Part shown: positions 1 through 3,687 of the stretch, in pieces | How positions within the stretch are numbered: the stretch's first letter is position 1 | How the letters are laid out: each line of letters begins with the position of its first letter | Assembly: GCF_031157835.1 (NCBI RefSeq) | Contig: NZ_JAVIDR010000014.1 | Span: 1-64,000 of the forward strand | Direction: 5' to 3' | DNA from: Acinetobacter rudis | GTDB taxonomy: Bacteria > Pseudomonadota > Gammaproteobacteria > Pseudomonadales > Moraxellaceae | Length of the DNA: 64,000 nucleotides | Position numbers and translations under genes: made by a program | The notes under the pieces: generated by a model | Database searches by the model: none | What the model saw: only the letters and a program-made list of their open reading frames with translations | Told to the model about the DNA's origin: nothing

Positions 1-83
1 TCCATGATCGGGATATAAATTCCGCACTGAACATACTTGCGCTTGGACATAAGCGTCTAGCAGTAGGAATCACCCCCATTTAA
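1..83 (+). CDS. TnpB/OrfB-like transposase-associated protein, C-terminal end only
   Basis: Reading the third frame from base 3 gives 26 codons and a TAA at 81-83. The peptide begins HDRDINSALNILALG and ends LAVGITPI. DRDxNxAxNI followed by a LAxG tail is the hallmark C-terminus of IS605-family OrfB/TnpB proteins, where the second D of DRD is the third RuvC catalytic acid. TnpB is an RNA-guided nuclease carried by IS200/IS605 elements. The rest of the gene lies outside the window. The stop codon sits inside the hairpin of the element's right end, as usual in this family. Only a short stretch is available, but the motif is distinctive. Confidence 0.8.
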   Translation, partial: HDRDINSALNILALGHKRLAVGITPI

Positions 84-100
84 GGGGGTGAGGATGTCAA
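1..100 (+). mobile_element. Right end of an IS200/IS605-family (IS1341-like) element
   Basis: After the TnpB-like reading frame there is an 8-bp stem at 70-77 and 84-91 (TCACCCCC / GGGGGTGA) with loop ATTTAA, then GAGGATGTCAA ending at base 100. A hairpin followed at short distance by TCAA is the arrangement of right ends recognised by Y1 (TnpA) transposases in this family. The host DUF454 gene stop codon begins only 8 bases further on, so the insertion lies just downstream of that gene without breaking it. The left end and any tnpA are outside the window. Confidence 0.7.
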
Positions 101-107
101 CCAACAA

Positions 108-533
108 CTAGGCCTTAAACCACATCCATAATTGCACACACAGCATAATCAGCACCACACCTATCACCATCCACAGATGCGGTACACTTAAGAACAAAAT
201 AATAGCTGCAACCGACATACTGATTAAGGAAACAATTTTCACCCGTAACGGTAAACGACGTTGCTCTTGCCATTGTTTTAAAATTGGTGCGATATAACGG
301 TTATTCACAATTTTTGCATGTAATTTTTCAGATCCTTTAGCTGCAAAAACAGTGGCTAAAAAATAAAAATCAAAGGTAGGCAAACCAGGAACAATAATTC
401 CTAAAGTTCCCAATGCCAAACATAGCCAGGCCAAGGCAATATAAATCCAACGTGCAATCCAACTCTTAGCTAACTTCGCTTTTACTACAGGAGTGGTATT
501 ATTTAGCTCTGATACTGACTCTGTTTGTTTCAC
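108..533 (-). CDS. DUF454 (YbaN-like) inner-membrane protein
   Basis: This 141-residue protein matches the DUF454 family (E. coli YbaN type). The N-terminal ~25 residues are polar. A hydrophobic block follows (WIYIALAWLCLALGTLGIIVPGLPT), in which the G-x-x-LPG-LPT signature is typical of the family. The middle is basic, and two more membrane segments lie in the last 45 residues. The molecular function of the family is unknown. It lies 20 bases downstream of the heme oxygenase gene on the same strand, so the two are probably co-transcribed. Its 3' end abuts the IS605-type end. Confidence 0.8.
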   Translation of the reverse strand: MKQTESVSELNNTTPVVKAKLAKSWIARWIYIALAWLCLALGTLGIIVPGLPTFDFYFLATVFAAKGSEKLHAKIVNNRYIAPILKQWQEQRRLPLRVKIVSLISMSVAAIILFLSVPHLWMVIGVVLIMLCVQLWMWFKA

Positions 534-553
534 ATCTTAGCCCTTTGATTAGC

Positions 554-1150
554 TTACTTCAGGTTTTCTAAATCTTGTAATAAGTCACCAAATCGTTTGA
601 AGCCTGCTAATGCTCCAGCAATAATTTGTCCTTTTTCAAGATCACTAAAATGAGCTGTATCTAAGCTATGCTTAAAACGCTTCCATACAATGGCACGCCC
701 TTCAGGATAAGCTGCTAAATTTCTTGCAGCAAACTCAGCACTGTAGCCAAATCGTGCTTGAGCTTCTTTAAATAAAAAAGCTGCTCCCAATGTTGAACCC
801 TCAGAGACATAAATCCATCCCAAAGACTCTGGATATGAAACATGTTGTGTAGCGATAGTTTCAAGCTGTGGTGTGAGTGATAAATCTTTTAAATCTTGTA
901 ATGCAGCATCCGAACGACCACGAATATCAAGATCAGGAATTAACTGCTGCACTTTGCTATCGAGATAAAGATGTTCTACATCTTTTTGGAAATAATATTG
1001 TGACAAGGTAAATTGAGCATAATTCTCTTTACTCTCAAATACACCAGCTTGTTGCATCAGTACTTCCATACGTTCATGTTCACTCAATGTTTCTTGTTTA
1101 AGACTCAACATTAAACTGTCTTGAATGGTTTGATCTGTCGGTGCATTCAT
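554..1150 (-). CDS. hemO: Biliverdin-producing heme oxygenase
   Basis: This 198-residue protein has the length and layout of bacterial heme oxygenases, which open the heme ring to biliverdin, CO and Fe2+ in the cytoplasm and so release iron. His25 in LSEHERME fits the proximal heme ligand near the N-terminus. The segment ESLGWIYVSEGSTLGAAFLF fits the distal helix, whose glycines lie over the heme. The C-terminal GALAGFKRFGDLL is also family-like. No heme receptor or TonB system is adjacent, and I found no clear Fur site in the 347 bases upstream. The subtype (HemO versus PigA/BphO) is not resolved. Confidence 0.85.
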   Translation of the reverse strand: MNAPTDQTIQDSLMLSLKQETLSEHERMEVLMQQAGVFESKENYAQFTLSQYYFQKDVEHLYLDSKVQQLIPDLDIRGRSDAALQDLKDLSLTPQLETIATQHVSYPESLGWIYVSEGSTLGAAFLFKEAQARFGYSAEFAARNLAAYPEGRAIVWKRFKHSLDTAHFSDLEKGQIIAGALAGFKRFGDLLQDLENLK

Positions 1151-1497
1151 TAAGAAGCTCCTTAGTAAAAGTGATTAAAGCTAAACTGAAACTAAAATAT
1201 ATTCGTTACATCAAACTCAATTTATCTCCGACGCTATCTTGATCAGAATAACAATCGTGTAGTTCTTCAATACTGAATAAGTTTTTGATTCATCCTATTT
1301 ATGTCGTATACAAAGTAAAAACTTGCCTTTATCTCTATAGACGAATATGCAAGCTAAAATGCACACCTTTATCATGTAACTTTTTGTAATTATTGTTTTT
1401 GACTTTACACCACTAAAAAAGCAAGAACCGAGTTAATAACTTAACTCGGTTCTCATGAAATATAGTCAACCTATTTAAGCAGACTAATATGTTTCAT
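1151..1497. other. Intergenic region between hemO and prc
   Basis: These 347 bases hold no convincing gene. They contain the prc terminator (1415-1453) and, nearer 1150, the presumed promoter of hemO on the minus strand. No operator was recognised. Confidence 0.6.
1415..1453 (-). terminator. Rho-independent terminator of prc
   Basis: A perfect 13-bp stem (1424-1436 / 1441-1453, AGAACCGAGTTAA arm) with loop TAAC is followed on the minus strand by GC and six T (plus-strand AAAAAA at 1415-1420). It lies 45 bases past the prc stop. Confidence 0.85.
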
Positions 1498-3687
1498 TTA
1501 TTTCTTACTTTGTGCCTGTGCATAATCCAACAAGATATTACTTGCTTCTGTCACATAAGTTTCTTCCTCAGGTAATGGAGGACGCTTATTTGCTTTCATT
1601 TTAGATCGTGCTTCAGCTAAGGCTTCTATTGAAGCTTGATAACTTTCCCAATTTGAATATGGTTTTTGTCCAGTCTCAGCACGGCGTTTATTTTCCGCAG
1701 CTAAGGTTTTATTCTCCAACGCCACTAACTCAGCTTTACGTTGATCAATATCTAAAACCACTTTCTTCTGGTCTTTAGTTGACTTCGCAATATCCATCCG
1801 TGTTGATAAATATTCAAACTGTGGGTCTAACTTAACGCGTTGTTTAGATAATTCAGCAAGTTGAGAGATATAACTATGTGTATCACCCTCACGTTTAAAT
1901 GGTGCTGTTGGAATCGTATCCCACTTCAACGCATTTTTCGCCTTACGCTCACCAAACTCTTCATCGTAAATATCAACCAATTTAATGTCTGGAATTACCC
2001 CTTTATTTTGAGTACTTCCACCAGTAATACGATAAAATTTACGCTGTGTAAGTGTAGCCTGACCATAAGCTAAGCTATCGAGTTGTACCTGAGCAGTACC
2101 TTTACCTGTTGTCGTGCTTCCGATGACAATACCACGCTCATAGTCTTGAATAGCTGCAGAATAAATTTCACTCGCAGAAGCTGAACCCAAGTTAATTAAA
2201 ACAGCCAATGGGCCTGCATATACTTGCTGCCCACCATCTGTATCTTCGTAAACGCTAACATTACCATTACCATCACGAATCTGGACAACTGGGCCTTCCT
2301 TCACCACTTGACCAATCATTTTAGCCACTTCTTCTAGAGATCCGCCTGGGTTATTACGTAAATCAATAATCACCCCATCTACTTTTTGAGCATTTAGTGT
2401 TTGCAAAGCGTCATAGGTATCTTTAGATACAGAACGATAATCGTTGCCCATTCGACGTGCGCGGAAGTTAAGATAGAAAGAAGGAATTTCAATCACACCC
2501 ATGTGGTATTTTTTGCCATCACGAACAACTTCTACAGTACGTGAACGAACACCAGCATCCTCTTCCTGAATCACATCACGAGTCAAGGTAACAACACGTG
2601 CCTGACTTAACGATGCTCCCGCACCCAACAGTTTCACCGCAACCTTAGTGCCACGTTTACCACGAATTAACCCAACAATTTCAGAACTTGGCCAACCGAT
2701 CACATCGACCATTTTCTCACCATTTTGAGCAACACCAATGATACGATCTCCAGACTTCACCTGCCCAGATTTTCCTGCTGGTCCACCTTCAACGATGGTT
2801 TCAATGCGAGTGTAGTCCTCATTGGTACGGTCAGGACGAATCGCGACTCCAATCCCCTCAAGTTGCAAACTTGTTTGACGGTTTAGCTCCATCGCATCTA
2901 CTGGTGGGAAATAGTTACTATGTGGGTCGTATGTTGCAAGCATTGCATTGAGTGTTTTGTCTAAGACATCATCACTCTTAATTCGTTTAATTCGCTCTAG
3001 TTTACGCGTATAACGTTTGGTTAACGTCTGTGCTGGCGTAAGATCTTCTGAAGCACTTAAGTCTTGGCCATTCGCTAAAGATGGATCAGCTTTTAATGCT
3101 TTTTGCTTCGCAGCTTCTTCTTCTTTAGTAATGGTCAAATTAATCAGCTGTGAAACTAATGTTTTTTTCCAATGCGTTTCAAGTTCAGCACGATTACTAA
3201 AATATGCTGCTTTTTCACGATCAACGTCTAAATACTCATTTGATTGTTTTAAATCCTGTGGCTTTTTCAATTCAGCCAACATAAAAGTATAAAACTCATT
3301 GAGGCGAGTACGATATTGAGCATGAATAGCGTAAGCTGCTGTTAAGTCACCTGTTTTCAGTGCTGTACCAAAATTGTTTCCATATTTCTTTTTGTATCCA
3401 TCAACTTCTGTCGCTAAAAATAGACTATGGTCAGGATCAAGACTATCTAAATACATGTCAAGAATGCGTGCTGAGGTTGCAGCATCAAGTCGTAAATTTA
3501 AATAATGTTGACGATCAACCAAAGTTGCTAATTGGCGAGAGACTAAAGCTTGTTCTTGTGTAGGTTTAATGGTGGACGAAGAAACGGTTGCAGACTCTGT
3601 TGCTGCAATAGCTTCATTCATAGCGTAGTTGAAGAACAAACCACCAGTCGCAATTGCAACTGCACAAGCGATTGTTTGAAGTTTCAT
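1498..3687 (-). CDS. prc: Carboxy-terminal processing (tail-specific) periplasmic protease
   Basis: This 729-residue S41 peptidase trims or degrades periplasmic proteins, including peptidoglycan-hydrolase pathway substrates in other species. The signal peptide covers about residues 1-29 (ending EAIAA). A long helical N-terminal domain follows, then a PDZ domain near residues 265-350 (LQLEGIGVAIRP to VAVKLLGAG) and the S41 core. The catalytic Ser is in GSASASEIYSAA, with the Lys 25 residues later in TGKGTAQVQ. A basic C-terminal helical region completes the protein. Length and order match E. coli Tsp/Prc (about 680 residues). It has its own terminator and appears monocistronic. Confidence 0.95.
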   Translation of the reverse strand: MKLQTIACAVAIATGGLFFNYAMNEAIAATESATVSSSTIKPTQEQALVSRQLATLVDRQHYLNLRLDAATSARILDMYLDSLDPDHSLFLATEVDGYKKKYGNNFGTALKTGDLTAAYAIHAQYRTRLNEFYTFMLAELKKPQDLKQSNEYLDVDREKAAYFSNRAELETHWKKTLVSQLINLTITKEEEAAKQKALKADPSLANGQDLSASEDLTPAQTLTKRYTRKLERIKRIKSDDVLDKTLNAMLATYDPHSNYFPPVDAMELNRQTSLQLEGIGVAIRPDRTNEDYTRIETIVEGGPAGKSGQVKSGDRIIGVAQNGEKMVDVIGWPSSEIVGLIRGKRGTKVAVKLLGAGASLSQARVVTLTRDVIQEEDAGVRSRTVEVVRDGKKYHMGVIEIPSFYLNFRARRMGNDYRSVSKDTYDALQTLNAQKVDGVIIDLRNNPGGSLEEVAKMIGQVVKEGPVVQIRDGNGNVSVYEDTDGGQQVYAGPLAVLINLGSASASEIYSAAIQDYERGIVIGSTTTGKGTAQVQLDSLAYGQATLTQRKFYRITGGSTQNKGVIPDIKLVDIYDEEFGERKAKNALKWDTIPTAPFKREGDTHSYISQLAELSKQRVKLDPQFEYLSTRMDIAKSTKDQKKVVLDIDQRKAELVALENKTLAAENKRRAETGQKPYSNWESYQASIEALAEARSKMKANKRPPLPEEETYVTEASNILLDYAQAQSKK

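What the first reader, a model, noticed from the sequence alone, without database searches (positions are those of the whole stretch)
1..120. TnpB end with a readable right end and the likely guide
The TnpB C-terminus, hairpin and TCAA terminus form the expected 3' part of an IS605-family element. In characterised TnpB systems the reRNA (omega RNA) covers this end, and its guide is the flanking sequence just past the element. That guide would begin at base 101 (CCAACAACTAGGCCTTAAAC) and overlap the last bases of the DUF454 gene. It would therefore direct the nuclease to the empty donor site.
Basis: partly seen in the sequence, partly recalled or inferred. Interest (0 to 1): 0.6.

Follow-up and report, generated by a model that had tools for sequence, protein, structure and literature searches.

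The report
Right end of multicopy TnpB element
The first 100 bases are the tail of a small jumping gene that occurs 16 times in this Acinetobacter genome and probably makes a guide RNA aimed at its own empty landing site; it is a well-formed example of a known kind of element, remarkable mainly because no transposase gene able to move it was found in the genome.

Summary
Bases 1-100 are the right end of a ~1.2 kb tnpB-only element present 16 times in this Acinetobacter genome: 16 right ends finish at GGATGTCAA before different flanks, and 16 left ends follow TTTAT. A copy inside an ABM gene fixes the boundaries to the base: 29 of 29 relatives read are uninterrupted exactly there. The window's left partner is contig C24; in 6 of 8 relatives the same neighbours adjoin without the element. 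The element's middle lies in an assembly gap, so this tnpB copy cannot be read; three of four fully assembled copies are open.

Compensatory changes across 50 right ends support a structured reRNA scaffold ending at base 100, so the proposed guide (101 onward, TAM TTTAT) follows from IS200/IS605 precedent. Guide RNA and cleavage are inferred, not shown.

Side find: 7 of 16 copies carry a 22-nt palindromic insert in reRNA hairpin 1; the same insert recurs in IS3- and IS5-family transposase genes.

The parts
3..83 (+). 3' end of tnpB: last 26 codons and stop; holds the RuvC-III Asp (HDRD)
   Evidence: full copies of the same element match PF07282/PF01385 and NF040570
31..100 (+). reRNA scaffold, 3' part, as conserved: closing stem 31-34,36-37 with 92-97; hairpin 1 39-44/51-56; hairpin 2 57-59/64-66; right-end hairpin 71-77/84-90
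67..70 (+). GAAT, the same letters and place as the right guide (GR) of IS608, 5' of the right-end hairpin
   Evidence: sequence; IS608 GR/CR from PMC5934647 passages
71..90 (+). right-end imperfect palindrome (IPR) / last reRNA stem
97..100 (+). TCAA, right cleavage site (CR) and end of the element
101..120 (+). host DNA; predicted guide (first 16-20 nt past the element), predicted target when preceded by TTTAT in an empty site
   Evidence: inference
108..533 (-). DUF454 gene, converging on the element; 7 bases lie between its stop codon and the element

Best explanation
Bases 1-100 are the right end of one of 16 copies of a ~1.21-1.23 kb IS1341-type element (IS200/IS605 superfamily, tnpB only) in an Acinetobacter. 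Shown: copy number, boundaries to the base on one copy and by copy comparison on the rest, insertion 3' of TTTAT without target duplication, IS608-like right-end signals, a conserved RNA-type fold over the last ~70 nt, open tnpB in three of four fully assembled copies, no tnpA in those copies. Inferred: TnpB binds an RNA that covers its own 3' end plus 16-20 nt of flank (from base 101, CCAACAACTAGGCCTTAAAC); it cuts TTTAT + that sequence, i.e. the empty site left by excision or carried by an uninserted sister or strain, and repair from the occupied copy restores the element. Movement itself would need an IS200-type TnpA supplied by a related element, present in the past or outside the assembly.
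For: 16 right ends and 16 left ends in one genome, 4 complete copies plus 12 + 12 contig-end halves. Empty site to the base: own C52 reads ...CATTTTTAT|element|AGCCCATTTCC..., relative G146 reads CACTTTTAT|AGTCCATTTCC; 29 of 29 relative loci read (of 35 relatives that matched) are uninterrupted there. Window site: of 12 left-only flanks only C24's matches the sigma-factor neighbour of the DUF454 gene in relatives (70.7% over 198 aa in G146); in 6 of 8 relatives' loci that gene (60-71%) lies within 0.6 kb of DUF454, too close for the element, and none of the 8 loci holds GGATGTCAA. Right-end signals equal IS608's (GAAT, TCAA); left motif TTTAT in 48 of 51 relative loci with a left end found; L142 (TTTAC) and L153 (TTCAT) carry matching changes in the guide next to the left hairpin (GAAAG, TGAAA instead of TAAAA). 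RNA fold: 96.4% of cells paired, 88 two-sided-change cells against 29.0 +/- 3.8 in shuffles, covariation 0.248 against 0.091 (0 of 500 shuffles; slid structures 0.072 at most); alignment-free recount on 67 ends agrees. TnpB: in 30 relatives Asp174 and Asp330 invariant, alternative Glu290 in 29 (Asp in one); the three open own copies have the same residues.
Against: No RNA, cleavage or excision data. The middle of the window's tnpB copy is in an assembly gap; one of four complete copies (C54) is frameshifted in the zinc finger. In 30 of 30 relatives the canonical RuvC-II Glu position holds Gly. No Y1 TnpA was found in the genome, so present-day mobility is doubtful; 12 assembly gaps at element copies mean absence is not proof. 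Target/guide agreement at the left end is not uniform: L145 has TTACT with an unchanged guide, and L116, L121 and L135 have a changed guide with TTTAT unchanged. The window site itself cannot be aligned to the base with relatives. The count of pairs with two-sided change is only mildly above shuffles (6 against 4.7; 33 of 500 as high).
Confidence: 0.82

Rival explanations
1. The TnpB family here has lost nuclease activity (canonical RuvC-II Glu replaced by Gly) and acts, if at all, as an RNA-guided DNA-binding repressor, like the TldR proteins (name and idea recalled, no call).
For: Gly at the canonical Glu position in 30 of 30 relatives aligned; in the match of relative L108 it stands against the Glu of ISDra2 TnpB.
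Against: A Glu exactly six residues before the zinc-finger Cys, the alternative position described in PMC10711439, is kept in 29 of 30 and is Asp in one; both Asp are invariant. The gene is multicopy inside mobile ends, not a single domesticated gene.
Confidence: 0.12
2. A relic: elements spread in the past, helper TnpA lost, and neither reRNA nor nuclease matters now in this strain.
For: No Y1 transposase found in the genome; one of four complete copies frameshifted; 7 of 16 right ends have the 5' arm of hairpin 1 replaced by a 22-nt insert.
Against: Three of four complete copies have an open tnpB; reRNA pairing is kept by compensatory changes across species. Copies are 92-96% identical, so not all are very recent.
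Confidence: 0.3
3. The hairpin serves only as single-stranded DNA substrate of TnpA or as a transcription terminator, with no guide RNA.
For: GAAT/hairpin/TCAA equals the IS608 DNA signal.
Against: Hairpins 1 and 2 lie inside the coding end, away from the TnpA signal, and still show two-sided changes (UA/CG/GC; AU/CG/UA); no T run follows the hairpin.
Confidence: 0.06

Closest known systems
IS1341 group (tnpB-only members of the IS200/IS605 superfamily)
   Same: Only tnpB between LE and RE; hairpin ends; 1.21-1.23 kb, near the 1,252-1,393 bp of the shorter IS1341 elements in PMC9956272 (passages)
   Different: 16 copies; that paper gives about one to four IS1341 copies per genome in the species it surveyed. 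Relatives with tnpA and the same ends exist in the genus (9 of 51 loci)
Solo-tnpB elements of Sulfolobus islandicus (PMC10640517, passages)
   Same: Solo tnpB with TTTAT at the left end, as predicted there by alignment
   Different: Archaeal; the enzyme tested there was the tnpA-associated one with TTTAA
IS608 / ISHp608 (IS605 group)
   Same: GR GAAT and CR TCAA identical; hairpin at each end; insertion 3' of a short T-rich target kept at the left flank
   Different: Target TTTAT instead of TTAC, with AAAA instead of AAAG as left guide; no tnpA
ISDra2 TnpB with reRNA
   Same: RuvC/zinc-finger TnpB (relative L108 to 8bf8, E 2.4e-22); TAM at left flank; guide expected past the right end
   Different: TTTAT not TTGAT; alternative catalytic Glu
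TnpBs with alternative Glu (PMC10711439)
   Same: D-phi-G motif (DLG) plus Glu six residues before the zinc finger
   Different: Not the DPG (pro-Fanzor) clade
HgcC RNA (Rfam RF00062)
   Same: Weak match over the same 3' scaffold: window 7-113, 20.6 bits, E 0.016; L142 33.4 bits, E 3.9e-4
   Different: All matches are below the gathering score of 50 bits; 4 of 7 loci matched, not the own copies L009, L026, L028

Membership tests
IS200/IS605 superfamily | Sub-terminal hairpins at both ends, no target duplication | tested here: met
   hairpins by reading; no duplication at the C52 site
IS200/IS605 superfamily | Insertion 3' of a fixed short target kept at the left flank | tested here: met
   TTTAT in 16 of 16 own left ends, 48 of 51 relatives
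IS605 group | Y1 transposase TnpA in the element | tested here: not met
   absent from the four complete copies and not found in the genome
IS1341 group | tnpB as the only gene between LE and RE | tested here: met
   four complete copies
IS1341 group (criterion of PMC9956272) | No remnant of a Y1 gene in the element | tested here: met
   tblastn of 8 relatives' TnpA against the C44 copy: best E 1.3, longest 32 residues; protein level, not the 20-bp DNA criterion of that paper
TnpB RNA-guided nuclease | RuvC D-E-D and zinc finger | tested here: met
   D174, E290 (alternative place; 29 of 30), D330, Cys pairs; own copy NF040570 256 bits, cut-off 100
TnpB RNA-guided nuclease | reRNA overlapping the 3' end of tnpB and running into the flank | tested here: inconclusive
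   structure conserved by compensation; no RNA data
TnpB RNA-guided nuclease | TAM- and guide-dependent cleavage | not testable with these tools
   needs bench work
IS607 | Serine-recombinase TnpA, GG crossover ends | not tested
   no search for the recombinase was made; the hairpins and TTTAT/TCAA ends argue against it
TldR (dead TnpB repressor; recalled) | Catalytic residues lost | tested here: not met
   both Asp and the alternative Glu kept

The most novel reading that the evidence does not exclude
In this family the guide-RNA scaffold and tnpB itself are being remodelled by a dispersed family of ~22-nt palindromes (consensus CTTnCGAARC-nnn-GYTTCTCAG) that replace about 7 nt each, mostly inside transposase genes of Acinetobacter and Moraxella: an undescribed micro-element, or a host-driven lesion, that hits tnpB/reRNA, IS3 and IS5 genes alike. 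Seven of the 16 copies here carry it in reRNA hairpin 1; one tnpB in genome G169 carries four.
Probability: 0.35. Interest if true: 0.75.

Novelty: new member of a known kind. Interest (0 to 1): 0.45.

Why it matters
It gives a genome with 16 natural, individually addressed guides of one TnpB family and no transposase found, so retention could be studied apart from transposition. PMC9956272 (passages) leaves open whether IS1341 elements are independent or decayed IS605; in Acinetobacter the same tnpB family and the same ends occur with and without tnpA, interleaved on the tnpB tree (at least 3 changes forced), which makes the question testable. The scaffold covariation points to the bases an engineered version should keep.

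Tried and rejected
Tried without gain: phage collection (no match); DNA searches for the window flank in 58 and in 175 genomes, which found no empty site for this insertion that aligns to the base; an off-site match of the guide at C56 (18 of 20 letters), set aside because no TTTAT precedes it; a solitary left-end-like stretch at C33:11398, with no tnpA or tnpB match in 3 kb; tRNA scan of the window (none). Structure prediction was not run; the sequence match to solved TnpB was judged enough. Papers: passages, one section (34) and one outline (44) were seen; search listings only in 22, 26, 27, 42, 43, 48, 75, 89. The core 13-mers of the 22-nt palindrome were in no paper held; that library is open-access text only.

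Rows dropped before counts: 68 distinct right ends were found in 107 loci by a pattern that requires GG[AG]AT and GGAnGTCAA, so those letters are near-invariant by construction; 50 were aligned, 18 left out (7 own copies with the 22-nt insert, 2 own short ends, 9 relatives with long loops or odd spacing: L085, L122, L128, L132, L136, L139, L143, L145, L152). The alignment-free recount used 67. Left ends: 11 of 62 loci had none within 16 mismatches of the own left end. tnpA: 8 by motif plus L157 read = 9 of 51. In the tree only 6 tnpA-bearing rows had a tnpB fit to use.

Full report
WHAT IS THERE. The window starts at base 1 of contig C5 of a 56-contig genome; 58 of the 62 fetched relatives of its element are titled Acinetobacter and the genus handle is shared with them, so I take it for an Acinetobacter. 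Searching the same genome with bases 1-120 gives 16 places that match the element part, the window included, and one short match to the flank. All 16 read GGATGTCAA and then differ at once. Related right ends are also on 33 plasmid records, 11 of Acinetobacter, the best 90% identical over 92 bases, and on no phage record.

BOUNDARIES. Four copies are assembled complete (C33, C44, C52, C54), 92-96% identical to each other and 1,212-1,226 bases long with TTTAT counted. A left-end query gives 16 left ends and one doubtful stretch; all 16 are preceded by TTTAT. Four complete copies plus 12 left-only and 12 right-only contig ends make 16 elements. The C52 copy lies in an antibiotic-biosynthesis-monooxygenase-like gene (PF03992, E 3.7e-10). 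I searched the part left of the insertion in 173 genomes: 35 relatives match, loci were issued for 29, and in 29 of 29 the gene runs on without interruption at the same codon. The closest, G146, reads CACTTTTAT|AGTCCATTTCCTATTG against own CATTTTTAT|element|AGCCCATTTCCTACTG. So the element is inserted 3' of TTTAT, ends at TCAA, and duplicates nothing.

THE WINDOW'S OWN SITE. In G146 the DUF454 gene is followed on its strand by a sigma-factor gene and another gene that looks like FecR to me. Of the 12 left-only flanks only C24's (L036) matches this neighbourhood (sigma 70.7% over 198 aa, the FecR-like gene 65.0% over 274 aa). C24's flank gene has sigma-70 domains. In 6 of 8 relatives' loci a close homologue of that sigma gene (60-71%) lies 0.1-0.6 kb from DUF454; the other two have only a 22-23% match; none of the 8 holds GGATGTCAA. 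C24's flank ends TTTGACAATCTAATTTTTTAT, and G146 has TTTTGACAATCTAATTTTT at the matching place, then diverges. The element thus lies between the DUF454 stop codon (7 bases away) and the sigma gene, whose likely ATG is 70 nt from the left end with TTTAT counted (a Fur-box-like stretch there is my reading from memory, not tested). The ~1 kb between C24 and C5 is not assembled, so this tnpB copy cannot be read. Of the four complete copies three are open (395, 391, 391 codons between stops) and one, C54, is frameshifted in the zinc finger.

NO TRANSPOSASE. PF01797 (Y1) has no match in the genome at E <= 0.001. In a genus sample of 149 genomes 45, the own included, hold element DNA at E <= 1e-10 and 26 hold a Y1 match; comparing the two lists, which appear to be the same sample, 23 of the 26 Y1 genomes are among the 45, and 22 of the 45 have none. 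Of 62 relatives fetched, 51 have a recognisable left end; 9 have a tnpA between left end and tnpB, 42 do not. Two of the relatives' TnpAs were scanned and are IS200-type (Pfam E 8.5e-45 and 2.7e-46). No tnpA remnant was seen in the C44 copy. On a quick tnpB tree of 58 rows the tnpA label needs 4 changes, 3 forced by well-supported branches, against 5.9 on average for shuffled labels (2-3 of 500 as low), so it is also partly inherited; three rows are short. I infer that tnpB-only and tnpA-bearing forms share ends and that the 16 copies were moved in trans.

END SIGNALS. IS608 has CR TCAA, GR GAAT, CL TTAC, GL AAAG (PMC5934647 passages). Here CR and GR are identical; the left target is TTTAT with AAAA before the left hairpin. 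Among 51 relatives 48 have TTTAT. L142 has TTTAC and its left guide is GAAAG; L153 has TTCAT and TGAAA: each changed target base comes with a matching guide base. Against this, L145 has TTACT with an unchanged guide, and L116, L121 (AAAC) and L135 (TGAAA) have a changed guide with TTTAT unchanged. The pairing rule is thus suggested, not established.

RNA SCAFFOLD. Fifty right ends were aligned. RNAalifold finds a closing stem, two small hairpins within the coding end and the right-end hairpin. For the structure I named, 96.4% of cells pair; two-sided changes 88 cells against 29.0 +/- 3.8 in shuffles; covariation 0.248 against 0.091, 0 of 500 shuffles as high; structures slid by 1-3 columns reach at most 0.072. 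The number of pairs with two-sided change is less decisive (6 against 4.7, 33 of 500). The closing stem hardly varies, so covariation says nothing for it. Hairpin 1 has UA:30, CG:18, GC:1, UG:1 at its apical pair, which at protein level swaps Lys and Glu (GHK/GHE); hairpin 2 has AU:34, CG:14, UA:1, other:1. An alignment-free recount on 67 ends agrees; the 7 own copies with an insert lose hairpin 1. The window end folds better than shuffles (z -4.28 for 35-100). Rfam's HgcC RNA matches weakly over the same stretch, below its gathering score.

NUCLEASE. Own TnpB matches NF040570 (256 bits, cut-off 100); its relative L108 matches ISDra2 TnpB (E 2.4e-22). In 30 relatives Asp174 and Asp330 are invariant; the column that meets the Glu of ISDra2 is Gly in 30 of 30; Glu290, six residues before the first zinc-finger Cys, is Glu in 29 and Asp in one. 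The three open own copies show the same residues. PMC10711439 (section 23 and passages) describes this alternative Glu, with a D-phi-G clade. So the protein is probably an active nuclease of that clade; not tested.

GUIDE. In IS200/IS605 the base right of the element is the first guide base; the guide part was about 16 nt in ISDra2. Hence guide 101-116/120 and target TTTAT-CCAACAACTAGGCCTTAAAC. In the own genome a search with the 120-base query found that sequence only here, plus one 18-of-20 match without TAM. The element destroys its own target by splitting TTTAT from the guide match.

SIDE FIND. Seven of the 16 right ends (C33, C24 end, C1, C52 start, C21, C17, C16) carry TTACGAAACAGTGTTTCTCAG in place of the 5' arm of hairpin 1. 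With up to 1 mismatch this 21-mer occurs 23 times in 11 of 175 Acinetobacter genomes, the backward control never. By my reading, 13 are in tnpB, 5 in an IS5-family gene, 1 in an IS3-family gene, 4 elsewhere, one of these in a terminator-like hairpin. Sixteen plasmid records of Acinetobacter and Moraxella match part of it; I read six, five in IS3-family genes and one in the IS5-family gene. Aligned with uninterrupted relatives, the genes gain 14-17 nt net, about 7 nt being replaced. The stem varies by compensation (GAAAC/GTTTC, GAAGC/GCTTC); one locus, seen as L147 and L070, has it reversed; one tnpB (L208) has four, the fourth a variant in the right-end loop. In 390 genomes of the order, few of them Acinetobacter, only the own genome was hit; the window has none. 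Copies of one IS are not independent events, so enrichment in transposase genes is suggestive only. The cause is unknown to me.

VERDICT. An ordinary kind of element, unusually well delimited here, with a plausible but untested guide function; the missing transposase and the 22-nt palindromes are the parts worth a follow-up.

Noticed in passing
L026:3516-3536 and six further own copies; L208:1301-1321, 1399-1419, 1501-1521; L205, L206, L207, L147: A ~22-nt palindromic insert family (CTTnCGAARC-nnn-GYTTCTCAG) sits in reRNA hairpin 1 / tnpB of 7 of 16 own copies and in unrelated IS3- and IS5-family transposase genes, replacing about 7 nt each.
   Followed up: partly
window 39-56: A Lys/Glu change in TnpB's C-terminus (GHK/GHE) tracks the base pair at the tip of reRNA hairpin 1: the RNA appears to constrain the protein.
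   Followed up: partly
window 7-113: Weak match to Rfam HgcC RNA over the reRNA scaffold, below the gathering score.
   Followed up: partly
L037, L038, L042 left flanks: Several left ends lie directly in the T tract after terminator-like hairpins, where TTTAT is easily found (by eye).
   Followed up: no
window 108-3687: Minus-strand run of tail-specific protease, heme oxygenase and DUF454 genes; in relatives a sigma-factor gene follows, and the element lies in between here.
   Followed up: partly
L046:1501-1547 (C33:11398): A solitary left-end-like stretch (79% over 44 bases) with no tnpA or tnpB match in the 3 kb read.
   Followed up: yes
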